Below, in pieces: positions 30,708-41,734 of a DNA stretch of 64,000 bases. How positions within the stretch are numbered: position 1 is the first letter of the stretch; every line of letters starts with the position of its first letter. A model generated the notes under the pieces. That model did not search any database, had not been told where the DNA came from, and worked only from the letters and a program-made list of their open reading frames with translations. Source of the stretch: Rhodoferax lacus (GTDB taxonomy: Bacteria > Pseudomonadota > Gammaproteobacteria > Burkholderiales > Burkholderiaceae_C); NCBI RefSeq assembly GCF_003415675.1, contig NZ_QFZK01000007.1:62001-126000 (forward strand), written 5' to 3'. The translations under genes were made by a program, and so were the position numbers.

Positions 30708-33374
30708 CTAAAGCGCCTCGGCGAACAACAGCTTTTCGAAATCCTGCAGTGGGCCGGGGCGGCCGAAGAAGTAACCCTGGTAGGCCTGGCAACCCAGGCG
30801 CTCCAGGAAGTCGCGCTGGGCCTGGGTCTCCACACCCTCGGCAATAACAGCCAGGCCCAGGTTCTGGGCCAGGTTGATGACGGTCTGGGCGATGGCGGCG
30901 TCCTTGCTGTCCACCAGCAGATCACGCACAAAGGACTGGTCAATCTTGAGCTGCTTGAGCGGCAGACGCTGCAGGTAGGACAGCGAGGAATAGCCGGTAC
31001 CAAAATCATCCAGCGAGAAGGCAATGCCCTGGTCATTCAGGGCCTCCATCTTGTTGACGGTCTCTTCCAGGTTGTTGACCATCAGGCTCTCGGTGAGCTC
31101 CAGTTTGAGCCGGTGCGGATTGGCGCCGGTGGCCAGCACGATGGACAGCACCTGCTCCACAAAGTCGCTCTGGCGGAACTGGCGCGCACTGACGTTCACC
31201 GAAATCGTCAGATGCTGGCAATCCTCCCGCGCCGCCCAGGCCTTGAGCTGGGCACAAGCCGTCTCCAGCACCCAGGCGCCTATGGGCAGGATCAGGCCGG
31301 TGTCTTCGGACAGCGGAATGAACTCGCCGGGCATGACCATGCCCCTCTGCGGGTGCCGCCAGCGCAGCAGCACCTCGGCACCCAGGATGCGGTCATGCGC
31401 ATCCACCTGGGGCTGGTAGTACAGCATCAACTGGTTGTTGGCTACAGCGTGGCGCAAGTCGTCTTCCAGGGCTGCGCGCGCGTCCACGGCGGCCTGCATG
31501 GCGGGGTCAAAGAAACGCACCGTGTTGCGGCCCGCAGCCTTGGCCTGGTACATGGCCGTATCGGAGCGCCGGAACAGCTCGTCGGTGGAGACGGACTGGT
31601 CGTTGAACAGGGTCAGGCCGATGCTGGAGGTGCACTTGTATTCGCGCAAGCCCCCGGTCTGCGTGCCCGCCGCCAGATTCAGGCGGTAGGGCTGGCGCAG
31701 CAGCAGCCGGATTTTCTCAGCCACGCCTTCGGCCTGGCTTGCGGCCAGTGCACTTTCGTCCAGCTCTTCGAGGATCACCACAAACTCGTCGCCGCCCATG
31801 CGTGCAGCCGTGTCGCCCAGGCGTATGCAGGACTGCAGGCGCGTGGCCACTTCCACCAGCAACTGGTCACCCACGCCGTGGCCCAGGGTGTCGTTGAGTA
31901 CCTTGAAGTTGTCCAGGTCGATCAGCATCAGCGCGCAGTGGTGCTGGTGGCGCCCGCAGCCCACCAGCGCGCGGTTCAGGCGCTCCAGCATGAGGCGGCG
32001 GTTGGGCAGGTTGGTCAGCGGGTCATAGAAGGCCAGCCGTTCGATCTTCTCGGCATTTGCGCGGCGCTCGCCAATGTCGCGGATGGAGGCATGCAGGTGC
32101 AATTTGCCAGACAAGTAAAAGTGGCTGCAGCGCACCTCCACATCCACCCTCTGGCCCGCCTTGCCCAGCAGCGTGGTCTCTATGGAGCGCGGCTCGCTGT
32201 CCAGGCTGGTCTGCAGCAGGATGGCGTTGCGGGCCGTCCGCTCGGGCCAGCAGGCCAGCCACAGGCGTTGGTCCAGGCCCAGCAACTCCTGGCGCGTGTA
32301 ACCCAGCATGGCACACAGGCTGTCGTTGGCTTCCACCAGGCGGCCGCTGGTATCGGTGATCTGGATGCCATCGCTGGCATTGCGCAGGTAGACCCGGTTG
32401 CGCAGGGCCTCCTGCGTGGTGATGGCCAGCATGCGCCACAGCAGCAGCCCCAGGGCCAGCGTGACCACGATGAAGGCGGCCGCGCCCGCATAGGTCTTGT
32501 TGCGCTCCTCGCGCCAGCCCGCCAGGTAGTCACTGCTGCCCAAGCCGACATTGATCAGCATGGGCGCGTTGCTGACCCGCTGGAAGGCAAACACACCTTC
32601 CTGCCGCTCCGGGCTGAGCGGGGTATAGAAGCTGCCAGCGTCCACGCCGCTGGCAAATACCGCCTGGAATTCCGGCGACACCAGCCGGTTGCCCACCTGC
32701 CCCACGGGCTGGTCTGTCAGGGGTGGATTGCGCGCAATCAGGCCCAGATCCTGGTCGCGCAAAATCACTGTGGCCCCGGGGCCCAGATCGAAGCGCGCGA
32801 GCAGCTGCTGAAAATAGTCCAGCGAAACGGTGGCAAACACCACGCCTGCAAAGGCACCGTCCGGGCGGTTGAAGCGCCGCGCAAAAATAATGATGTCGTG
32901 CTGGACCAGACGGCCCCACACGGGCTTGGTGATCCACAGGGGGTGGCCGTCGCTTTGGCGCAGGGCGACAAAATAGTCGCGGTCGGCGATGCTCACGGGC
33001 TTGCTGCTGTCCACACCGTTGCCCAGCACCACCTGCCCCCGCTCGTTGGCCAGGCGCAGGCCCTCGATTTCGGGCAAGCGGCCATGGAAGTTTTCAAAAA
33101 TGTCGTGCGCGCCACTGGCGTCCAGGCCATGGCCCCTGGCAAGCTGGAGTTCGATATCGTCCACCAGATGGGTCAGGGCAAAGTCAATCTTGCCCACACT
33201 GGAGGACACATTGCGCTCCACCGCACTGGCGATATTGCGGGTGTTGCTCTCGGCGCGCTGCGTGTACTGCTGTTGGCTCTGGTTGAGCCAGTAGGCCGAG
33301 GCCACCACGGCCAACAGGTTCACGCCCAGCAGAACGGCGATCAACAAGGTTCGGATGGACCGTGTGCGGGACAT
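30708..33374 (-). CDS. Membrane PAS-GGDEF-EAL protein
   Basis: About 888 residues from the ATG at 33374. Order: membrane helix (about 9-30), periplasmic Cache-type sensor of about 260 residues, second helix near 305-325, PAS (about 330-440), GGDEF domain with the intact MGGDEFV active site, and EAL domain reading EVLLRW with conserved DDFGTGYSSL and KIDQSF. EVL for EAL is a conservative change, so phosphodiesterase activity is likely retained. It therefore may make and break c-di-GMP. It lies beside the EutR-like regulator on the same strand; no direct functional tie is shown. Confidence 0.93.
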   Translation of the reverse strand: MSRTRSIRTLLIAVLLGVNLLAVVASAYWLNQSQQQYTQRAESNTRNIASAVERNVSSSVGKIDFALTHLVDDIELQLARGHGLDASGAHDIFENFHGRLPEIEGLRLANERGQVVLGNGVDSSKPVSIADRDYFVALRQSDGHPLWITKPVWGRLVQHDIIIFARRFNRPDGAFAGVVFATVSLDYFQQLLARFDLGPGATVILRDQDLGLIARNPPLTDQPVGQVGNRLVSPEFQAVFASGVDAGSFYTPLSPERQEGVFAFQRVSNAPMLINVGLGSSDYLAGWREERNKTYAGAAAFIVVTLALGLLLWRMLAITTQEALRNRVYLRNASDGIQITDTSGRLVEANDSLCAMLGYTRQELLGLDQRLWLACWPERTARNAILLQTSLDSEPRSIETTLLGKAGQRVDVEVRCSHFYLSGKLHLHASIRDIGERRANAEKIERLAFYDPLTNLPNRRLMLERLNRALVGCGRHQHHCALMLIDLDNFKVLNDTLGHGVGDQLLVEVATRLQSCIRLGDTAARMGGDEFVVILEELDESALAASQAEGVAEKIRLLLRQPYRLNLAAGTQTGGLREYKCTSSIGLTLFNDQSVSTDELFRRSDTAMYQAKAAGRNTVRFFDPAMQAAVDARAALEDDLRHAVANNQLMLYYQPQVDAHDRILGAEVLLRWRHPQRGMVMPGEFIPLSEDTGLILPIGAWVLETACAQLKAWAAREDCQHLTISVNVSARQFRQSDFVEQVLSIVLATGANPHRLKLELTESLMVNNLEETVNKMEALNDQGIAFSLDDFGTGYSSLSYLQRLPLKQLKIDQSFVRDLLVDSKDAAIAQTVINLAQNLGLAVIAEGVETQAQRDFLERLGCQAYQGYFFGRPGPLQDFEKLLFAEAL

Positions 33375-33545
33375 GGGACGGTCAATGGCCTGGGGGCCTG
33401 CTCCTTGGTGGTTGTATATGCCTATGTTGGGCGCACCCCAGGCGTTGCGCTTGCGGTGCGGCCATTCTTGCACACCCTCAGGGCGCCGGGTTACCGGGTT
33501 TGCACTCCGGGGGCGCGTGCGGCACAGGCAGTGCTTGTCGGCTCT

Positions 33546-34511
33546 CTAGGACTGGCGTTTGCGCGTGTCCGAGGGGAGCTCGCCAAACAGGGCCTGGTAG
33601 TCGTGGGCAAAGTGGCCAAAATGCCAGAAGCCGCTGGCCGTGGCCGCCTCGGTGACCGATTGCGCGCTCTTGAGGGCCTCGCGCGCCTGCTTCAGGCGCA
33701 CCGCCTTCACATAGGCCAGCGGGCTCATGTCGAGCACGCGCAAAAAGGCGTTTTGCAGGGTGCGCCGGCTCACCCCCATTTCCATGCACAACTGGGTGAC
33801 GGTGGGCGCGCTGTCCTGTGCCTCCTGCACCCGGGCCACGCAGCGCTGCACCAGGGCCCAATGCGCATGGGCCGAGCCGCTCAGCGTGTCGGTGCTGCCG
33901 GGTGCGCGCAACAGGCTGTCGAGCAAAAAATCGCTCACACTGGCCACCACCGCGGGGGTGGACAGCAGGGCCGGGTCGCGCCGTGCGGACTGGTACAGCT
34001 CCATCACATAGGCCTTGATCTTGGCCAGGGGGCGCACGGTGTGCGTGAGCGCACCGGCCGCCAGGGGCAGCTCCACGCCCTCGGCGAGTTGCAGCTCCAG
34101 CCCCAGCATGGTGTGCTGGCGCGAGGTGCGGAACTCAAAGCCCGAGCGGCCCGAGAACAGGTGCACCGCATCCAGACCGCACAGGCGCCCGCAAAACATG
34201 CCGCCGCCGCTGGCCTGCAGTGGCACGCCCAGTGCCAGCACGCGCGGGGGCAACTGCCCGGTCTGCAGCACCGACTGCTGCACCCGCTCCACAAACAGCT
34301 TGATGCCGCTGCCTTCCACCTGTGCCAGCTCGCCCTGGAACAGCCCGGCACTGAGTTGCAGGTAGTCCTGGTTCCAACCGGACAGGGCGCTGGCCTGCTC
34401 CTGCGCATCCCCAAAGTGCAGCGATTGCCGGGCCAGGCTGCGGGCCTCACGCACGGCCGGGCGCAGGCCGCGGCCAGGGTCTTGCAGGGGGTGTGGGGCG
34501 TGAACAGGCAT
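33546..34511 (-). CDS. AraC family regulator, EutR-like
   Basis: A 321-residue regulator from the ATG at 34511. The N-terminal sensor has ALSGWNQDYLQLSAGLFQGE, which recalls the EutR segment with ...AWQQ.YDQL.PG.F.GE. The DNA-binding part has VSRRTLQNAFLRVLDMSPLA and ASGFWHFGHFAHDYQALFGE, near-matching the EutR C-terminus. EutR activates ethanolamine genes with ethanolamine and adenosylcobalamin. No eutBC is present here. It is divergent from the glutamine-synthetase-like gene, with a 144-bp gap holding a palindrome and the shared promoter element, so it is the likely activator of this cluster. Confidence 0.88.
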   Translation of the reverse strand: MPVHAPHPLQDPGRGLRPAVREARSLARQSLHFGDAQEQASALSGWNQDYLQLSAGLFQGELAQVEGSGIKLFVERVQQSVLQTGQLPPRVLALGVPLQASGGGMFCGRLCGLDAVHLFSGRSGFEFRTSRQHTMLGLELQLAEGVELPLAAGALTHTVRPLAKIKAYVMELYQSARRDPALLSTPAVVASVSDFLLDSLLRAPGSTDTLSGSAHAHWALVQRCVARVQEAQDSAPTVTQLCMEMGVSRRTLQNAFLRVLDMSPLAYVKAVRLKQAREALKSAQSVTEAATASGFWHFGHFAHDYQALFGELPSDTRKRQS

Positions 34512-34524
34512 GCGGCCATTCTCC

Positions 34525-34536
34525 GGCTTGCAAGCC
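34525..34536. promoter_or_regulatory. 12-bp perfect palindrome before the EutR-like gene
   Basis: GGCTTGCAAGCC lies 13 bp upstream of the regulator start codon. Its position would suit autorepression by a bound protein. Only symmetry and location support it. Confidence 0.4.
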
Positions 34537-34579
34537 AAAACAGCGACCGGGTAAGTACCGAGCGTGCAGGGGCCTGGTG

Positions 34580-34622
34580 TGCCGATTTCGGATAGCCAGC
34601 CCCCAGCCGACTCCCTAGCATG
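34580..34622 (+). promoter_or_regulatory. Shared promoter element, ligase gene copy
   Basis: TGCCGATTTCGGATAGCC (34580-34597) is followed after 16 bp by CCTAGCATG (34614-34622). The permease gene carries the same pair with the same 16-bp spacing at 40081-40123. TAGCAT fits a -10 hexamer (TAnnAT), and the first block would then overlap the -35 region, as for an AraC-type activator site. The element ends 34 bp before the ATG at 34656. Confidence 0.7.
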
Positions 34623-34655
34623 GTCCGGAACGCACAACAACGAGGAGCACCCACC

Positions 34656-36044
34656 ATGGCAAGCAGCAAGAAGAACAAGGCTACTGAGCACCCGGCTGTG
34701 GCCGAGATACGCCGCTCCGGCGCGCAGAAGGTCAAGGTCGCCGTGAGCGACATCGACGGCGTGCTGCGCGGCAAGTATTTGCACATCGACAAGTTCCTGG
34801 GTGCTACTGAACCGTACCCCGGTGGCGGCTTCGGCTTTTGCGATGTGGTGCTGGGCTGGGACATGATGGATGTGACCTACGACAACACCGTGGCCACCGG
34901 CTGGCAGCACGGCTTTCCGGATGCGCTGGCGCGTCTGGACCTGAAGACCACACGCCGCGTGCCCTGGGACGAGGACGTGCCCCTGGTGCTGGGCGAGTTT
35001 GTCAATGCCGACGGCACGCCGCATGCGCAGTGCCCGCGCCAGACCTTGAAGCGCGTTCTGAAGCGTGCCGAAAAACTCGGCTTCCAGGTCATGACCGGCA
35101 TGGAGTTTGAGTGGTTCAACTTCCTGGAAACACCGCAGAGCTGGGCCGCCAAAAAAGGCGTGGGCCCGGAGCCGCTTACCCCCGGCATGTTTGGTTACTC
35201 GCTGCTACGCATGAACCAGAACCGGGATTTCTTCAACGCCATCATGGACGACATGCGCGCCTTTGGCGTGCCCATAGAAGGCCTGCACACCGAAACCGGG
35301 CCCGGTGTGTACGAGGCTGCCATCGGCTTCAGCGAAGCGCTGGAGCAGGCCGACCGCGCCATCCTGTTCAAGACCGGCACCAAGGAAATCGGTGCGCAGT
35401 TTGGCATCATGCCCAGCTTCATGGCCAAACCCAACCAGGCGCTGCCGGGCTGCAGCGGCCACATCCACCAAAGCCTCTCAGACGGCAAGACCAACCTGTT
35501 TTATGACGCCAAAGCCGGGCGCAAGATGAGCCCGCTGTTCGAGAGCTACCTGGCCGGCCAGGTGGCCTGCCTGATGGACTTCGCGCCCCTGATCTGGCCC
35601 ACCATCAACAGCTACAAGCGCCTGGTGGATGGCTTCTGGGCGCCCGTGAAGCCGACCTGGGGCATGGACAACCGCACCGCGAGTTTTCGCGTGATTGCCG
35701 GCAGCCCCAAAGCCACGCGCCTGGAGACCCGCTGCCCCGGTGCCGATGTGAACCCCTACCTGGCCATGGCCGCGGTGATTGCCGCCGGTCTGCACGGTGT
35801 GGAGAAGGGCTTGAAGCTCACCACGCCGCCCATTACCGGCACCAACAAGGGCGCCGAAAAAGTGCCCCGGGCACCCCGCACCCTCATAGAGACCAACCGC
35901 ATTTTCGAGAAATCGGCGATTGCCCGCGACTGGCTGGGCGACGGCTTTGTGGACCACTTTGCCGCCACCCGTGACTGGGAGTGGCGCCAGTGGCTGGACG
36001 CCGTGACCGACTATGAAATGAAACGCTATTTCGAGATCATTTAA
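34656..36044 (+). CDS. Glutamine-synthetase-like gamma-glutamyl-amine ligase
   Basis: A 462-residue member of the glutamine synthetase family, ATG at 34656 with GAGGAG upstream. The ATP/Glu site is present: FEWFNF near 150, TETGPGVYE near 212, GCSGHIHQS near 265, NRTASFRV near 339 and ETRCPGADVNPYLA near 358. The FDGSSI ammonium-site motif of true GlnA is absent (WDMMDVTYDN instead). PuuA- and GlnA4-type enzymes share this and ligate glutamate to amines. Next to an EutR-like regulator, alcohol and aldehyde dehydrogenases and a permease, the best guess is gamma-glutamyl-ethanolamide synthetase. The substrate is inferred. Confidence 0.85.
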   Translation: MASSKKNKATEHPAVAEIRRSGAQKVKVAVSDIDGVLRGKYLHIDKFLGATEPYPGGGFGFCDVVLGWDMMDVTYDNTVATGWQHGFPDALARLDLKTTRRVPWDEDVPLVLGEFVNADGTPHAQCPRQTLKRVLKRAEKLGFQVMTGMEFEWFNFLETPQSWAAKKGVGPEPLTPGMFGYSLLRMNQNRDFFNAIMDDMRAFGVPIEGLHTETGPGVYEAAIGFSEALEQADRAILFKTGTKEIGAQFGIMPSFMAKPNQALPGCSGHIHQSLSDGKTNLFYDAKAGRKMSPLFESYLAGQVACLMDFAPLIWPTINSYKRLVDGFWAPVKPTWGMDNRTASFRVIAGSPKATRLETRCPGADVNPYLAMAAVIAAGLHGVEKGLKLTTPPITGTNKGAEKVPRAPRTLIETNRIFEKSAIARDWLGDGFVDHFAATRDWEWRQWLDAVTDYEMKRYFEII

Positions 36045-36116
36045 GGCGCGCAGTGACGCAGCGTCTACCGGCTTGACTACCTGGTTATCTATTTATATTT
36101 TTCTTGCGAGCACACC

Positions 36117-37250
36117 ATGAGCATCACTTCCTTCAACTTCCCAACACCCATCCAGTTCGGCGCCGGTGCGCGCAAGCTCGTGGCCGCCCACCTGCTGGAG
36201 CAGGGCTGCAAGCGTCCGCTCATCGTGACCGACCGGGCGCTGGGCGCACTGCCCGTGATGGCCGAATTTCTGACCCATTTGCAAGGGCTGGACGTGGCCG
36301 TGTTCAGCGGCGTGTTTGGCAACCCCACCTGCAGCCAGGTGATGGACGGGGCCGCCGCCTACAAAGCGCACCACGCAGACTGCGTGATCGGCTTTGGGGG
36401 CGGCGCTGCACTCGATGTGGCCAAGATCGTGGGCCTGGCGGCGGTACACGCGGGCGACATTCTGGAATACGTGTGGGACCATCCCAACGTGCGCCCCATC
36501 GTCAACGCGTTGCCGTATTTCGTGGCCCTGCCCACCACGTCGGGCACCGGCTCGGAGGTGGGCCGCTCCAGCGTGGTCAGCGAGAACGACACGCATGTGA
36601 AGCGCACCGTGTTCAGCCCCAAGATTCTGGCCCGGCGCGTGTTTGCCGACCCGGAGCTGACCCTGGGCCTGCCGGCCTCGGTGACAGCCGCCACCGGCAT
36701 CGATGCGCTCACCCACAACATCGAGAGCTATCTGTCACCGGCCTACCACCCGCTGTGCGATGGCATTGCGTTGGAGGGCACACGCATTGCGGCCGCAGCC
36801 CTGCGCACCGCCGTGCTGGAGCCGCTCAACCTCAAGGCACGCGCTGACATGATGATGTCTTCCATGATGGGTGCCATTGCCTTCCAGAAAGACCTGGGCG
36901 CGGTGCACTCCTGCGCCCATGCGCTGGGGGCAGTCTGCGATATGCACCACGGCCTGGCCAATGCGCTGATGCTCGACACCGTGCTGGCCTGGAACTACGA
37001 GGCGGTGCCGCAAAAGTTTGACGAGCTGGCCCATGTGTGCGGACTCACCGGAGGGGGTGCCGCGCTGGTGCCGTGGATCAAACAACTCAAGGCCGACATC
37101 GGCATCACCGGCGGTCTGGCCGCGCGCGGCGTGAAGCCCGAACACCTGCCACGCCTGGTGGCCATCGCCACGGCCGACATCTGCCACCAGACCAACCCGC
37201 GCGCCTGCACGGCGGCCGACTTTGAGCGTCTGCTCACGGCGGCCATGTAA
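36117..37250 (+). CDS. Iron-containing alcohol dehydrogenase
   Basis: A 377-residue group III alcohol dehydrogenase. The NAD site shows GFGGGAALDVAKIVG, then ALPTTSGTGSEV; metal ligands are Asp and His in GIDALTHNIES and His in HSCAHALGAVCDMHHG. In this cluster it would oxidise the hydroxyl of a gamma-glutamylated amino alcohol to the aldehyde. It follows the ligase after 72 bp with an AT-rich leader. Confidence 0.93.
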   Translation: MSITSFNFPTPIQFGAGARKLVAAHLLEQGCKRPLIVTDRALGALPVMAEFLTHLQGLDVAVFSGVFGNPTCSQVMDGAAAYKAHHADCVIGFGGGAALDVAKIVGLAAVHAGDILEYVWDHPNVRPIVNALPYFVALPTTSGTGSEVGRSSVVSENDTHVKRTVFSPKILARRVFADPELTLGLPASVTAATGIDALTHNIESYLSPAYHPLCDGIALEGTRIAAAALRTAVLEPLNLKARADMMMSSMMGAIAFQKDLGAVHSCAHALGAVCDMHHGLANALMLDTVLAWNYEAVPQKFDELAHVCGLTGGGAALVPWIKQLKADIGITGGLAARGVKPEHLPRLVAIATADICHQTNPRACTAADFERLLTAAM

Positions 37251-37319
37251 TTTGCCCATCCAGGCTGCTGCTACATCGCCCGTTTATAAATATATATATA
37301 TTGCCAAGGACACTTTGCC

Positions 37320-38693
37320 ATGCCCACTCTTGCCATCCATAACCCCGCCACCGGCAAACTGCTGACCGAAGTGGAGGCGGATGACGCCGCATCGGTAGCC
37401 GCCAAGGCCGCGCGCGCCCGTGCGGCGCAGCCCGCGTGGGCCGCCGTGCCCCTGACCGAGCGCAAGGCATGCATCACGCGCTTTCGCGCATCCATCGTGG
37501 CCGAGCTGGACAGCCTGGCTGCCACCATGACCTCCGAGACCGGCAAGCCCATCAAGATGTCGCGCAACGAGCTCAATGGTCTGCTGGGCCGCATCGACTT
37601 TTTCCTGAAGGAAGTCGATGCGCAACTGGCCACCGAAACCGTCTATGACGAAGGCGGCATGACCGAGCAGATCGAGCACACGCCCCTGGGTGTGGTGGTG
37701 AACATCTCGGCCTGGAACTACCCCTGGTTTGTCGGCGGCAATGTCTATGTGCCCGCCCTGCTGACCGGCAACGCCGTGCTCTACAAGCCCTCCGAATTTG
37801 CCACGCTCACCGGTCTTGCCATGGCGCGCCTGCTGCATGCGGCAGGCATCCCCGAGGATGTATTCATTGCAGTGGTGGGTGGCGGCGATGTGGGCGTGGC
37901 CCTGCAGGCGCAAAAGATAGACGGCCTGTTCTTCACCGGCTCGTACGCCACCGGCGCAAGAATAGCGCAGGCGCTGGGCCCGCGCATGGTCAAGCTGCAG
38001 TTGGAACTGGGCGGCAAGGACCCCACCTATGTGTGCGAAGACGCCAATGTGCAGGTGGCGGCCGAGTCGCTGGCCGATGGCGCCATGTACAACACAGGAC
38101 AAAGCTGCTGCTCGGTGGAGCGTGTCTATGTGCACGAAGCAATATACGACGCCTTTGTGGACGCGTTTGTGGCCACCGTCAAAACCTTCCAGGTCGGTGA
38201 CCCGGCCTCTGAAGATACCTATATTGGTGCCATCACCCGTGCACCGCAGCTTGCCGTGCTCGATGCCCAGGTGGCCGACGCACAGGCCAAGGGCGCCCGG
38301 CTGCTGCTCGGTGGTGCGCGCCTTGCGGGCCCCGGCAACTTCTATGCGCCCACCGTGTTCTCCCATGTGAACCACAGCATGGAGCTGATGCGCGAAGAAA
38401 GTTTTGGCCCCATCATCGGCCTGCAAAAAGTCTCGGGCGATGCCGAGGCCGTGCAGCTGATGAACGACACCCGCTACGGCCTCACCGCCGGTGTCTTCAC
38501 GCCCGACGCACAGCGTGCCCGGGCCATCCTGTCCCAGGTGCAGGCCGGCACGGTGTACTGGAACTGCTGCGACCGCGTCAGCCCCCGCCTGCCCTGGAGC
38601 GGGCACGGCGACTCCGGCGTGGGCCTGACCCTCTCAACCTACGGCATTGCCACATTTACGCGGCCCCGGGCCTGGCATCTGCGCAGCGTGTGA
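37320..38693 (+). CDS. Aldehyde dehydrogenase
   Basis: A 457-residue NAD(P)-dependent aldehyde dehydrogenase, somewhat short for the family (usually 475-500). The catalytic Cys is in TGQSCCS near residue 262 and the general-base Glu in LELGGKDP near 231; SAWNYPWF is the substrate-tunnel motif. The expected product in this cluster is the gamma-glutamyl amino acid, for example gamma-glutamylglycine from ethanolamine. Its last 38 bp overlap the convergent EAL gene. The leader has a TATATATATATA-type run. Confidence 0.93.
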   Translation: MPTLAIHNPATGKLLTEVEADDAASVAAKAARARAAQPAWAAVPLTERKACITRFRASIVAELDSLAATMTSETGKPIKMSRNELNGLLGRIDFFLKEVDAQLATETVYDEGGMTEQIEHTPLGVVVNISAWNYPWFVGGNVYVPALLTGNAVLYKPSEFATLTGLAMARLLHAAGIPEDVFIAVVGGGDVGVALQAQKIDGLFFTGSYATGARIAQALGPRMVKLQLELGGKDPTYVCEDANVQVAAESLADGAMYNTGQSCCSVERVYVHEAIYDAFVDAFVATVKTFQVGDPASEDTYIGAITRAPQLAVLDAQVADAQAKGARLLLGGARLAGPGNFYAPTVFSHVNHSMELMREESFGPIIGLQKVSGDAEAVQLMNDTRYGLTAGVFTPDAQRARAILSQVQAGTVYWNCCDRVSPRLPWSGHGDSGVGLTLSTYGIATFTRPRAWHLRSV

Positions 38694-40047
38694 AATTGTC
38701 CTGCACATAGGCATTGAAGGCGTCTGCGGGCAGGGCCTGGCTGAACAGATAGCCCTGGAAGAACTCGCAGCCGCAGGCCACCAGAAAGGCGTGCTGCTCG
38801 GCGGACTCCACACCCTCGGCAATCACGCTGAGCCCCAGGCTGTGGCCCAGCGTCACCACGGTGCGGGCGATGGAGGCATCGTTGGCATCGGTGAGCACTT
38901 CGCGCACAAAAGACTGGTCAATCTTGAGCTGGTTGAGCGGCAGCCGCTTGAGGTGGTTGAGGGACGAATAGCCGGTGCCGAAATCGTCCAGCGAGAAGGT
39001 CACGCCACATGCGCGCAGGGCCGTCATTTTCTGGATGATGTCGGGCAGGTCTTCCACCAGCATGGACTCGGTGATCTCCAGCTCCAGCAGGTGCGCGGCA
39101 ATGCCGTGGCGGTCTATCAGCCCCAGCACCTGGGCCACAAAATCCTTCTGGCGAAACTGCAGCTGGCTGATGTTCACCGCCAGGCGCAGTTGCGCGCAAG
39201 CCGGTAGCATGGCCCAGGCCTGCAGCTGCACCGCAGCCTGCTGCAACACCCACAGCCCCATCGGCAGAATCAGGCCGGTCTGCTCGGCCGCTTCGATGAA
39301 TTTGCCCGGCAGCACCAGACCGCGCTGCGGGTGCTGCCAGCGTATCAGGGCCTCGGCGGCAATCACCCGGCCTTGGGAATCGAGCTGCGGCTGGTAGTGC
39401 AACACGAACTGCTGCTGGTCCAGTGCCTGCTGCAGTTCTTCCTCCAGCAGGGAGCGCACCGAGGCATCGTTTTGCATCACATGCAGCATGCCGTACAACA
39501 GGCCAAGCGCCGCTGTGACTTGCACCCAGCCGCCAGTGGCGCGCACGCTTTCGGGCAGGGCGTATTGCGGGTAGGGCGAGCCATAGCGCATGGACAGAAA
39601 CGCCATGGCCAGCAGACAGGCCAGTGCAATGCCATGGCGCAGCCAGGGGCCCGAGGCTCTGAAGATCATCAACGCGGCCACACTCAGGGGCAGCAGGTAG
39701 AGATGCGTGGTGCGCGGAGATTGCGGCGTGGACGCATCAAACAGCCAGGCGATCAGACAGATGACGGCAAACAGCGTGGTGAATATCAGCACAGCGGCCC
39801 ACTGCACCTGCTTGCGCCAGATGAGAACGGCGGACGCCAGCCCGGCGCAAATCATGCACAGATCGAGCGCCACCAGAGGCCAGTTGCCCAGGTAGCTGAA
39901 ATACAGGCCCCAGGCCAGGCCCATCATCCACATGCCCATGCTGCCCAGCATCAGTGCCCGGCGCGCACGCCTGCCCTGTACATGCACCAAGTCCGGGCCA
40001 TACCAAAGTTGGTACGCGCCTTGCATGAGGGTGGCGGGGGTGAGCAT
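38656..40047 (-). CDS. EAL-domain phosphodiesterase, membrane-anchored
   Basis: A 463-residue protein. Six hydrophobic segments fill residues 30-190. The C-terminal EAL domain has an intact EALIRW near 231, with VNISQLQF, ESMLVEDL, DDFGTGYSSL and KIDQSF, so c-di-GMP hydrolysis is predicted. There is no GGDEF domain. The gene sits between the aldehyde dehydrogenase and the permease of the amino-alcohol cluster, on the opposite strand, and overlaps the former by 38 bp. Whether it serves the cluster is unknown. Unlike the GGDEF-EAL gene it retains the Ala of the EAL motif. Confidence 0.93.
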   Translation of the reverse strand: MLTPATLMQGAYQLWYGPDLVHVQGRRARRALMLGSMGMWMMGLAWGLYFSYLGNWPLVALDLCMICAGLASAVLIWRKQVQWAAVLIFTTLFAVICLIAWLFDASTPQSPRTTHLYLLPLSVAALMIFRASGPWLRHGIALACLLAMAFLSMRYGSPYPQYALPESVRATGGWVQVTAALGLLYGMLHVMQNDASVRSLLEEELQQALDQQQFVLHYQPQLDSQGRVIAAEALIRWQHPQRGLVLPGKFIEAAEQTGLILPMGLWVLQQAAVQLQAWAMLPACAQLRLAVNISQLQFRQKDFVAQVLGLIDRHGIAAHLLELEITESMLVEDLPDIIQKMTALRACGVTFSLDDFGTGYSSLNHLKRLPLNQLKIDQSFVREVLTDANDASIARTVVTLGHSLGLSVIAEGVESAEQHAFLVACGCEFFQGYLFSQALPADAFNAYVQDNFTRCADARPGAA

Positions 40048-40080
40048 GTATTTTTCGGTGTGTCATGCGGATTGTAGGCA

Positions 40081-40123
40081 TGCCGATTCGGGATAGTCGC
40101 TTTGTTGCGGCACACCTAGGATG
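40081..40123 (+). promoter_or_regulatory. Shared promoter element, permease gene copy
   Basis: TGCCGATTCGGGATAGTC (40081-40098) and CCTAGGATG (40115-40123) are separated by 16 bp, matching the element upstream of the ligase gene at 15 of 18 and 8 of 9 positions. TAGGAT fits a -10 hexamer. The element ends 42 bp before the permease ATG. This ties the permease to the ligase operon despite the intervening EAL gene. Confidence 0.7.
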
Positions 40124-40165
40124 CAATGGGCTTGCGGCGTCATCAACACATAAACGGGGTAAACC

Positions 40166-41734
40166 ATGAAGACTGAACACATGACAGAGGACGAAAAAGT
40201 CCTGCACGGCATGGGCTATGCCCAGGAACTGCACCGACGCATGGGCGCGTTCCAGAACTTTGCCATTTCGTTCTCGATCATTTGTATCCTCTCGGGTGGC
40301 TTCGGCTCCTTCCCGATTGCCCTCTCCAGCGGCGGCGGCTTCTCGCTGACCATTGGCTGGCTGGTGGGGGGCGCCTTTGCCCTGATCGTGGCGGCCAGCC
40401 TGGGGCAGATTGCCTCGTCCTACCCCACCGCGGGTGGCCTCTACCACTGGTCTTCCATCCTGGGCGGACGCTTCTGGGGTTGGGCCACGGCCTATGTGAA
40501 CCTTCTGGGCCTGCTGTTTGTGGTGCCCGCCGTCAATGTGTTCCTGTACCTCATCAGCAAGGACCTGTTCTTTGGCGCCGTGCTGGGCTGGGATGTCAGC
40601 ACCTGGTCGCAGACCACGCAAATCGTCTCGGTGGCCGCCATTACTGCCGTGCAGGCCTTGCTGAACCACTTCGGCATCAAGATCACCACCATGCTGACCG
40701 ACTTTTCGGGTTACATGATTTTTGTTGTGACGGTGCTGCTGATCGGCATGTTTGTGATGGCCGCACCCAGCCTCGACGTGGGCCGTGCCTTTGCCTTTGT
40801 GAACAACACCGGCGCTGCCGGCGGCGGCGTGGCCCCCGAGTCCAGCCCGCTGATGGCATTTGTGATTGGCCTCTTGTACCCGCTGTTCACGATCACCGGC
40901 TTTGACGCGTCTGCCCATACTTCTGAGGAAACCAAGGATGCGCGCAACACCGTGCCCAGGGGCATGCTGCACGCCGTGCTGTGGTCCATCCTGTTTGGCT
41001 TTGCTCTGATCATCTCCATGATCCTGGCGATTCCGGACCTGAAGGCAGCAGCGGCCACCGGCTGGAATTCCTTCAACGAGCTGTTTATCGCGGCCATCCT
41101 GTCTAGCTTCCTGGGCAAGATCCTGTTGCTGGCGGTGATTCTGTCGAACTTCATCTGCGCGCTGGCCGCAGTGACGTCCACCTCGCGCATGATCTACGCC
41201 TTTGCACGCGATGACGGCCTGCCCTTCTCGGGCCTCTTGAAGTCGGTCAGCCCCAAGCACCGCACACCCGTGGCGGCCATCTGGGCCACGGCCATCCTGA
41301 CCAGCCTGCTCACAGCCATCACCACCCCGCTGGGAGCCTTTGCGGCCCTCTCCACCGGCAGCGCCATGTACCTGTACATCTCCTACGGCATGCCCATCAT
41401 GGCGGGCTTTTTTGCCGAAGGCAAAACCTGGACCACCTACGGCCCCTTCCGCCTGGGCGGCCTGTCCAAGCCCTTTGCCATCATCGTGGCCATTGGCACC
41501 GTGGTGACCATCATTGCCGGCCACGTGTTCGTGCCCTCCATCGAGGCCGACGCGGTGGCCAAGACCGGCTTTGTGCCGGGCCTGGGCTACTACACCATCG
41601 GCTTTTTGATCTTCCTGGGCGTGCTCTGGTTTGGCCTGGAAAACAAGCGCTTCAAGGGCCCACCGGTGGGCGACGAGATAGCCAAGCGCCAGGCCCTGAT
41701 TGCAGCGCAGGAGAAGGCGCTGGAAGCGGGCTAA
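40166..41734 (+). CDS. APC family permease (candidate amino-alcohol importer)
   Basis: A 522-residue transporter with 12 predicted helices. The start (HGMGYAQELHRRMGAFQNFA, then FSIICILSGG) matches the GABA/choline-permease branch of the amino acid-polyamine-organocation family. The promoter element shared with the ligase gene suggests it imports that pathway's substrate, ethanolamine or a close relative. Related permeases carry GABA, choline or amines, so the substrate is inferred. A terminator follows at 41755. Confidence 0.9.
   Translation: MKTEHMTEDEKVLHGMGYAQELHRRMGAFQNFAISFSIICILSGGFGSFPIALSSGGGFSLTIGWLVGGAFALIVAASLGQIASSYPTAGGLYHWSSILGGRFWGWATAYVNLLGLLFVVPAVNVFLYLISKDLFFGAVLGWDVSTWSQTTQIVSVAAITAVQALLNHFGIKITTMLTDFSGYMIFVVTVLLIGMFVMAAPSLDVGRAFAFVNNTGAAGGGVAPESSPLMAFVIGLLYPLFTITGFDASAHTSEETKDARNTVPRGMLHAVLWSILFGFALIISMILAIPDLKAAAATGWNSFNELFIAAILSSFLGKILLLAVILSNFICALAAVTSTSRMIYAFARDDGLPFSGLLKSVSPKHRTPVAAIWATAILTSLLTAITTPLGAFAALSTGSAMYLYISYGMPIMAGFFAEGKTWTTYGPFRLGGLSKPFAIIVAIGTVVTIIAGHVFVPSIEADAVAKTGFVPGLGYYTIGFLIFLGVLWFGLENKRFKGPPVGDEIAKRQALIAAQEKALEAG

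What the first reader, a model, noticed from the sequence alone, without database searches (positions are those of the whole stretch)
33546..41734. EutR-like cluster without ethanolamine ammonia-lyase: possible gamma-glutamyl amino-alcohol pathway
The sequence shows an EutR-like AraC regulator, a glutamine-synthetase-like ligase lacking the FDGSSI ammonium-site motif, an Fe-alcohol dehydrogenase, an aldehyde dehydrogenase and an APC permease, with no eutBC. Known: GlnA4-type enzymes of actinomycetes glutamylate ethanolamine. Inference: ethanolamine (or a similar amino alcohol) is imported, glutamylated, and its hydroxyl oxidised to the aldehyde and then the acid, giving gamma-glutamylglycine. 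A hydrolase that releases glycine is not visible in the window.
Basis: partly seen in the sequence, partly recalled or inferred. Interest (0 to 1): 0.85.

Follow-up and report, generated by a model that had tools for sequence, protein, structure and literature searches.

The report
Ethanolamine glutamylation cluster missing its hydrolase
A bacterial gene cluster very probably breaks down ethanolamine by first tagging it with glutamate, a route already known from other bacteria; here it is built partly from different parts and lacks its usual last gene.

Summary
The genes are real and correctly placed. In relatives, 64 of 66 loci with both dehydrogenases have a PuuD/C26-type hydrolase between them. 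The window's genome lacks that type, yet GS, FeADH and ALDH stay under strong purifying selection. 'No eutBC' holds only locally: eutBC is on another contig. For ethanolamine: an ethanolamine-permease-like gene ends 16-134 bp before GS in 14 of 80 loci, 12 with a divergent EutR-like gene, a pair also found before eutBC in 4 of 8 relatives' loci; GS and eutB share only 5 of 299 genomes, 14.9 expected; a relative of the window's permease replaces the TRAP transporter in a Sinorhizobium operon. Against: the GS is only 33-36% identical to the ethanolamine-type GS, and in 25 loci it directly follows phnW of a phosphonate operon. Substrate is inferred, not shown.

The parts
33546..34511 (-). EutR-like AraC-family regulator, divergent from the GS gene; no full-length paralogue found in the genome
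   Evidence: related AraC near GS in 15 of 80 loci; AraC of 28-40% identity beside eat-eutBC in 4 of 8 relatives' eutBC loci
34512..34655 (.). divergent intergenic region between the regulator and GS genes; the 20-mer TGCCGATTTCGGATAGCCAG is shared with L013 and L014
   Evidence: function not tested
34656..36044 (+). glutamine-synthetase-like gamma-glutamyl ligase (proposed ethanolamine gamma-glutamylase)
   Evidence: metal-site motifs kept, FDGSS absent, FEAP Glu replaced by Trp
36117..37250 (+). iron-containing alcohol dehydrogenase (proposed gamma-glutamylethanolamide dehydrogenase)
   Evidence: 39-41% to the FeADHs of eto-type operons; both have the same best NCBIfam model
37251..37319 (.). 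place where 64 of 66 relatives with both dehydrogenases carry a PuuD/C26-type gamma-glutamyl hydrolase gene; only 69 bp and no gene here
37320..38693 (+). aldehyde dehydrogenase (proposed to oxidise the gamma-glutamyl aldehyde to gamma-glutamylglycine)
38656..40047 (-). EAL-domain protein, tail-to-tail with ALDH; an interloper, not proposed as part of the pathway
40166..41734 (+). APC-superfamily permease (proposed ethanolamine uptake)
   Evidence: 47% to the permease inside a Sinorhizobium GS-ALDH-FeADH operon; 43-46% relatives beside GS clusters in 5 of 80 loci

Best explanation
The cluster encodes a gamma-glutamylation route for ethanolamine as nitrogen (and carbon) source. The APC permease imports it; the EutR-like AraC protein activates the divergent GS-FeADH-ALDH operon; the GS-like ligase joins ethanolamine to the gamma-carboxyl of glutamate with ATP; FeADH oxidises the hydroxyl to the aldehyde; ALDH oxidises that to gamma-glutamylglycine. 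In relatives an operon-encoded PuuD-type (C26) hydrolase then releases glycine and glutamate. This genome lacks that hydrolase type, so the last step must be done by another enzyme (the PuuD-like protein of its polyamine-type locus on C19, or one of its two gamma-glutamyltranspeptidases). Shown here: gene content, conservation, the missing hydrolase, co-occurrence patterns. Inferred: every reaction, the substrate, the regulation and the substitute hydrolase.
For: (a) GS-FeADH-C26-ALDH order in 64 of 66 loci with both dehydrogenases, C26 stop to ALDH start median -4 bp. (b) An ethanolamine-permease-like gene ends 16-134 bp before GS in 14 of 80 loci; a divergent EutR-like AraC in 12 of these. 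The one representative scanned (L016) scores 361 bits to TIGR00908, cut-off 382. (c) The same AraC-Eat pair stands before eutBC in 4 of 8 inspected eutBC loci of relatives. (d) GS in 47, EutB in 95, both in 5 of 299 family genomes; expected 14.9, hypergeometric P 2.9e-4, genomes not independent; by genus 7 of 126 against 10.7, P 0.07. (e) The P. denitrificans plasmid operon RpiR-FGase-TRAP-GS-ALDH-FeADH has the layout of the ethanolamine operon of PMC10132767; its FeADH and ALDH are 41-42% identical to the window's. S. meliloti Ak57 pSymB has the same operon with a 47% relative of the window's permease in place of TRAP. (f) Legionella lytica and B. vietnamiensis plasmids pair a GS of the clade sister to the window's with ALDHs 53-60% identical to the eto ones; Legionella also has an FeADH 52-54% identical to them. 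(g) dN/dS against L014: GS 0.063, FeADH 0.080, ALDH 0.087.
Against: The window GS is 33-36% identical to eto-type GS and groups elsewhere; IpuC is nearer at 39-41%. The window's own FeADH and ALDH are only 38-42% identical to the eto and Legionella/B. vietnamiensis ones. The window's permease does not score as Eat. Regulator and Eat scores lie below curated cut-offs. The genome keeps eutBC, so the need for this route is unclear. In 25 of 80 loci GS follows phnW rather than a permease. Some loci break the module: L072 (phnW-GS) has no FeADH, C26 or ALDH in the 10 kb downstream; L068 (Eat-GS-FeADH) has no C26 or ALDH in 10 kb; L069 likewise in 2.8 kb; L084 and L091 have no FeADH in about 2.5 kb. 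The genus-level co-occurrence test is weak. No biochemical evidence.
Confidence: 0.72

Rival explanations
1. Same enzyme logic, another primary amino alcohol (alaninol, 3-aminopropanol or similar), giving the corresponding amino acid.
For: GS is closer to IpuC (39-41%) than to the eto GS; IpuC's route runs through gamma-glutamyl alaninol (recalled). FeADH and ALDH match 4-hydroxybutyrate and succinic-semialdehyde dehydrogenase models best.
Against: Eat-like permease and EutR-like regulator in part of the relatives. The eto FeADH and ALDH have the same best NCBIfam models, so those names do not argue for C4 substrates. Rarity of GS together with eutB.
Confidence: 0.13
2. The module belongs to phosphonate catabolism: GS glutamylates 2-aminoethylphosphonate or a product of it, downstream of PhnW.
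For: GS starts 6-180 bp after phnW in 25 of 80 loci. Of the 35 loci with phnW anywhere in the stretch, 20-23 have the AEP-type ABC genes, 27 the PhnR-type regulator, 18 PhnA and 13 the HD oxygenase; PhnY in 16 of 80 loci. L072 has phnW-GS without the rest.
Against: I know of no phosphonate step that needs both an FeADH and a gamma-glutamyl hydrolase (recalled chemistry). PhnY and PhnA are separately present in part of these loci. 14 other loci have Eat-like genes instead or as well. No phn gene was seen beside the window's cluster (neighbouring frames, by eye).
Confidence: 0.08
3. Gamma-glutamylation of putrescine or an alkylamine (PuuA- or IpuC-like), with the dehydrogenases acting on products.
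For: GS superfamily; the relatives' C26 hydrolase is nearest the Puu hydrolase model (93 bits, cut-off 266).
Against: The genome has a separate polyamine-type locus with two GS-like genes and a PuuD-like gene; PuuA model 169 bits, cut-off 650; no amine-oxidising gene in the cluster.
Confidence: 0.05

Closest known systems
eto-type ethanolamine operon (EtoVWX TRAP, ETAGA, GAADDH, GETADH, GGAH) of Phaeobacter sp. MED193, which that paper calls closely related to genes shown to work in C. salexigens and A. tumefaciens (PMC10132767, passages seen)
   Same: GS-like ligase + aldehyde dehydrogenase + alcohol dehydrogenase (FeADH in the three plasmid copies seen here); uptake system and regulator in the operon
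   Different: GS of another clade (33-36%); relatives of the window use a PuuD/C26 hydrolase where two of the three plasmid copies have an N-formylglutamate-amidohydrolase-family protein (the P. albus stretch lists no hydrolase); EutR-like AraC instead of RpiR; APC permease instead of TRAP (but APC also in S. meliloti); the window lacks any local hydrolase
GlnA4 pathway of Streptomyces coelicolor (PMC6529630, passages seen)
   Same: ligase, dehydrogenase, aldehyde dehydrogenase and amidohydrolase logic; gamma-glutamylglycine intermediate proposed there
   Different: short-chain dehydrogenase instead of FeADH; regulator EpuRI; actinobacterial
ipu isopropylamine pathway (ipuC of Paenarthrobacter aurescens TC1 plasmids)
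   Same: GS-like ligase (39-41%), putative glutamine amidotransferases, ALDH, amino acid permease nearby
   Different: cytochrome P450 and SDR in the cluster; a 'putative alcohol dehydrogenase' of unstated type at its edge; ALDH only 29% identical to the window's
Puu/Pau putrescine glutamylation pathway
   Same: GS-like ligase, ALDH and C26 hydrolase
   Different: amine oxidation (PuuB, recalled) instead of alcohol oxidation; this genome has its own Puu-like locus elsewhere
EutR-Eat-EutBC short eut operons
   Same: AraC-Eat regulator-permease pair, as in part of the relatives of this cluster
   Different: ammonia-lyase chemistry instead of glutamylation

Membership tests
Ethanolamine gamma-glutamylation pathway (eto/GlnA4 kind) | GS-like ligase lacking the ammonium-site features of GlnA | tested here: met
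   FDGSS absent, FEAP Glu replaced by Trp; metal-site motifs kept
Ethanolamine gamma-glutamylation pathway (eto/GlnA4 kind) | alcohol dehydrogenase and aldehyde dehydrogenase in the same operon | tested here: met
   homologous to the eto FeADH and ALDH at 39-42%
Ethanolamine gamma-glutamylation pathway (eto/GlnA4 kind) | gamma-glutamylglycine hydrolase in the cluster | tested here: not met
   absent in the window; no cluster-type C26 in the genome, while 42 of 47 GS-positive family genomes have one
Ethanolamine gamma-glutamylation pathway (eto/GlnA4 kind) | ligase acts on ethanolamine | not testable with these tools
   needs an enzyme assay
Ethanolamine gamma-glutamylation pathway (eto/GlnA4 kind) | dedicated ethanolamine transporter | tested here: inconclusive
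   window permease is far below the TIGR00908 cut-off, but its relative replaces the TRAP in a Sinorhizobium operon
eto-type GS clade | groups with the GS of the TRAP/APC eto-type operons | tested here: not met
   separate clade, sister to GS of Legionella, Photobacterium, B. vietnamiensis and others
EutR (NF007522) | score above the curated cut-off | tested here: not met
   118 bits, cut-off 319; still the best family
eut (ethanolamine ammonia-lyase) operon | eutBC in the cluster | tested here: not met
   eutBC lies on contig C11; no match to the AraC or Eat queries in the 16 kb around it
Puu pathway | PuuA-type ligase and amine oxidase | tested here: not met
   GGputSyn 169 bits, cut-off 650; no oxidase in the cluster

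The most novel reading that the evidence does not exclude
In many Comamonadaceae the glutamylation module is part of a 2-aminoethylphosphonate operon (transporter-phnW-GS-FeADH-C26-ALDH), so that one operon handles phosphonate and ethanolamine head-groups of lipids together, or the GS glutamylates an amine derived from the phosphonate; in the window's lineage the module has moved under an EutR-like switch in a genome that keeps eutBC, and hands its product to another pathway's hydrolase.
Probability: 0.15. Interest if true: 0.65.

Novelty: new variant of a known kind. Interest (0 to 1): 0.4.

Why it matters
It extends a known ethanolamine route that does not use the ammonia-lyase to the Comamonadaceae, with another ligase clade, another hydrolase family and, in part of the genomes, the regulator-permease pair of the eut operons. 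It makes a clean test possible: the same EutR-Eat pair stands before two chemically different enzyme sets in relatives, and the two sets rarely share a genome. The phnW linkage suggests a joint lipid head-group salvage operon.

Tried and rejected
Rejected: a Puu-type reading (own polyamine-type locus found). Rejected: eto-type GS membership (tree). Rejected: the genome's FGase as the missing hydrolase; the only PF05013 match lies among genes that look like hut genes by sequence (read by eye, recalled), and no eto-type hydrolase query matched that region. Other C26-family matches in the genome: L003 lies beside an anthranilate-synthase-like gene (by eye); L004 and L005 were judged CTP synthase and carbamoyl-phosphate synthase from frame length and recall only. 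Literature: listings for a phnW-GS link or an Eat-GS-FeADH cluster showed nothing relevant in the held library; most subscription papers are not held. PMC12117332 passages were off topic. The solute-binding-protein paper that PMC10132767 cites as reference 32 (Vetting et al.; DOI recalled) is not held, so its content is known here only through that citation. A PDB search with ALDH used a very strict limit (1e-80) and returned nothing. No structure prediction was run. In one search some own-genome paralogues were read in a wrong frame (L007, L008, L010) and spoil their places in that tree; one search replaces it, with GS-like reads taken from larger regions, and leaves out the paralogue at C19:619208. 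Family names of the neighbours (PhnW, PhnR, PhnA, Eat, Phn-HD, ABC genes, C26) rest on one representative each; other members were assigned by sequence clustering.
Full report
What is there. The window carries an AraC-family regulator (33546-34511, -), a GS-like ligase (34656-36044, +), an iron-containing alcohol dehydrogenase (36117-37250, +), an aldehyde dehydrogenase (37320-38693, +), an EAL-domain protein on the other strand (38656-40047) and an APC permease (40166-41734, +). NCBIfam places the regulator nearest EutR (118 bits, cut-off 319), then AndR (86 bits). No GS model reaches its cut-off for the ligase. Its two best PDB sequence matches are 11zs (256 bits) and 5dm3 (232 bits) (I recall 5dm3 as the Chromohalobacter salexigens protein, which no call confirmed). 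In an alignment with the genome's own GlnA the ligase keeps the metal-site motifs but lacks FDGSS and has Trp where GlnA has the Glu of FEAP; by recalled GS biochemistry it is then not an ammonia ligase. The permease, however, is separated from the operon by the EAL gene and scores far below the cut-off of the curated ethanolamine-permease model.

The genome. The genome (4.9 Mb, 71 contigs, listed as 100% complete) has eutB on contig C11, followed directly by a frame that I take as eutC (as a query it matched beside eutB in 8 of 8 relatives' loci). The AraC and Eat queries find nothing in the 16 kb around it. The genome has six Gln-synt_C matches, the window's included. Two of these lie in a polyamine-type locus on C19 with a PuuD-like C26 gene and an ALDH; transporter and FAD-oxidoreductase genes there were recognised by eye. 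The AraC protein has no full-length paralogue, and the window's permease is the genome's only match to the ethanolamine-permease model, at 33 bits.

Relatives. A scan of genome contigs (84,980 species) found 178 stretches encoding a relative of the ligase; the best 80 loci were kept and studied. Their labels are mostly Comamonadaceae, other Burkholderiales or unresolved beta-proteobacteria; two are labelled Haliea and one Verrucomicrobiales. FeADH orthologues were seen in 74 and ALDH orthologues in 66 of 80. Of the 14 loci without a full pair, 9 have less than 1.8 kb of sequence after GS; the other five, L068, L069, L072, L084 and L091, have 2.5-10 kb and lack one or both genes there. Between FeADH and ALDH lies a PuuD/C26-type gene in 64 of the 66 loci with both, the exceptions being L014 and L015; its stop overlaps the ALDH start (median -4 bp). 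The representative's best NCBIfam match is gamma-glutamyl-GABA hydrolase (93 bits, cut-off 266), and it matches the PuuD structure 6vtv. The window has 69 bp there and no gene, and its genome holds only the C19 PuuD-like gene, 38% identical. Of the 47 GS-positive genomes of the family sample, 42 have a C26 match at E 1e-60 or better; the window's genome, G086, G091, G185 and G256 do not. The genomes of L013 and L014, nearest to the window (ligase 95% identical), show only a 39% match; their completeness is not given. That of L015 has a 74% match, not on L015's own contig. Despite the loss, dN/dS between window and L014 is 0.063 (GS), 0.080 (FeADH) and 0.087 (ALDH), so the enzymes are still under selection.

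Why ethanolamine. First, in 14 of 80 loci an ethanolamine-permease-like gene ends 16-134 bp before GS; the representative scores 361 bits to TIGR00908, cut-off 382. Twelve of the 14 have a divergent AraC gene related to the window's. Two further Eat-like genes lie downstream of the cluster, in L054 and L065, the former in a genome with eutB about 5 kb after GS. Second, at 8 eutBC loci that I picked by hand from the list, a related pair (AraC at 28-40%, Eat at 36-38% identity) stands before eutBC in 4; a fifth has Eat alone; three have neither. So one kind of regulator-permease pair serves two enzyme sets. Third, in 299 family genomes GS occurs in 47 and EutB in 95, both in 5 (one EutB a fragment), against 14.9 expected (hypergeometric P 2.9e-4). 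Genomes share ancestry; counted by genus, 7 of 126 hold both against 10.7 expected (P 0.07), so the trend is suggestive only. In four of those seven genera no sampled genome has both. The window's genome is one of the five that do. Fourth, the Paracoccus denitrificans plasmid operon (RpiR, N-formylglutamate-amidohydrolase-family protein, TRAP, GS, ALDH, FeADH) has the gene order of the Phaeobacter ethanolamine operon given in PMC10132767, and S. meliloti Ak57 pSymB has the same operon with an APC permease 47% identical to the window's in place of the TRAP. Permeases of this type also lie beside the GS cluster in 5 of 80 loci. Fifth, plasmids of Legionella lytica and B. vietnamiensis pair a GS of the clade sister to the window's with ALDHs 53-60% identical to the eto ones; Legionella also has an FeADH 52-54% identical, while none is annotated in the B. 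vietnamiensis stretch. This links that side of the GS tree to the same chemistry.

What speaks against it. The ligase is 33-36% identical to eto-type GS and 39-41% to IpuC, and sits in a separate clade. The window's FeADH and ALDH are only 38-42% identical to the eto, Legionella and B. vietnamiensis ones. The plasmid GS nearest to it (45.6%) has an N,N-dimethylformamidase-family gene about 5.6 kb away and no FeADH or ALDH annotated beside it. In 25 of 80 loci GS starts 6-180 bp after phnW; of the 35 loci with phnW in the stretch, 20-23 have AEP-type ABC genes, 27 the PhnR-type regulator, 18 PhnA and 13 the HD oxygenase, and PhnY is seen in 16 of 80. L072 has phnW-GS and none of FeADH, C26 or ALDH in 10 kb; L068 has Eat-GS-FeADH and no C26 or ALDH in 10 kb. 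These facts keep another amino alcohol, or a phosphonate role, alive as rivals.

Known or new. The pathway is published. GlnA4 of S. coelicolor is a gamma-glutamylethanolamide synthetase with proposed downstream dehydrogenases and amidohydrolase (PMC6529630, passages). Phaeobacter grown on phosphorylethanolamine raises proteins of a single operon assigned to this route, and that paper states that closely related genes were shown to work in C. salexigens and A. tumefaciens (PMC10132767, passages). A review repeats the Streptomyces route (PMC9397018, passages). What the listings of my searches did not show is the Comamonadaceae version: another GS clade, a C26 hydrolase, EutR-Eat neighbours, and the link with phnW. 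I therefore call it a new variant of a known kind, and the window's copy a reduced form of that variant.

How it most likely works. Uptake by the APC permease; activation by the AraC protein; ligation of ethanolamine to glutamate; two oxidations to gamma-glutamylglycine; hydrolysis outside the cluster, by the C19 PuuD-like protein or one of two gamma-glutamyltranspeptidases (PF01019 matches on C19 and C51). All reactions are inferred. Because the AraC protein is the only EutR-like regulator found in the genome, it may also control eutBC; this was not tested.

Noticed in passing
L018, L042, L079 and others, upstream of GS: GS directly follows phnW inside 2-aminoethylphosphonate-type operons (25 of 80 loci within 180 bp), often with PhnR, PhnA, PhnY and an HD oxygenase on the other strand.
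   Followed up: partly
L029, L035, L058, L092 (between GS and FeADH): A GNAT-family acetyltransferase-like gene of about 170 aa follows GS in 20 of 80 loci; named by eye, role unknown.
   Followed up: no
L072 downstream of 11356; L068 downstream of 12561: Broken-up versions of the module: phnW-GS alone in L072, Eat-GS-FeADH without C26 and ALDH in L068.
   Followed up: partly
window 30708-33473 and 38656-40047: Two EAL-domain proteins flank the operon; their EAL domains are 53% identical, and the second lies between the operon and the permease.
   Followed up: partly
L103 1823-9302 and L153 1-8726: Plasmid clusters combine a GS-like gene with a C26-family hydrolase, a desaturase and a PLP-dependent transferase (L103 also homoserine O-succinyltransferase and a phnW-annotated gene); resembles rhizobitoxine biosynthesis (recalled).
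   Followed up: no
L012 2362-9180: The genome's eutBC sits beside genes that look like an RND efflux system (by eye), with no match to the AraC or Eat queries in 16 kb, unlike 4 of 8 relatives' eutBC loci.
   Followed up: partly
G251:C392:11017-12616: Two C26 copies in tandem, one with an in-frame stop.
   Followed up: no
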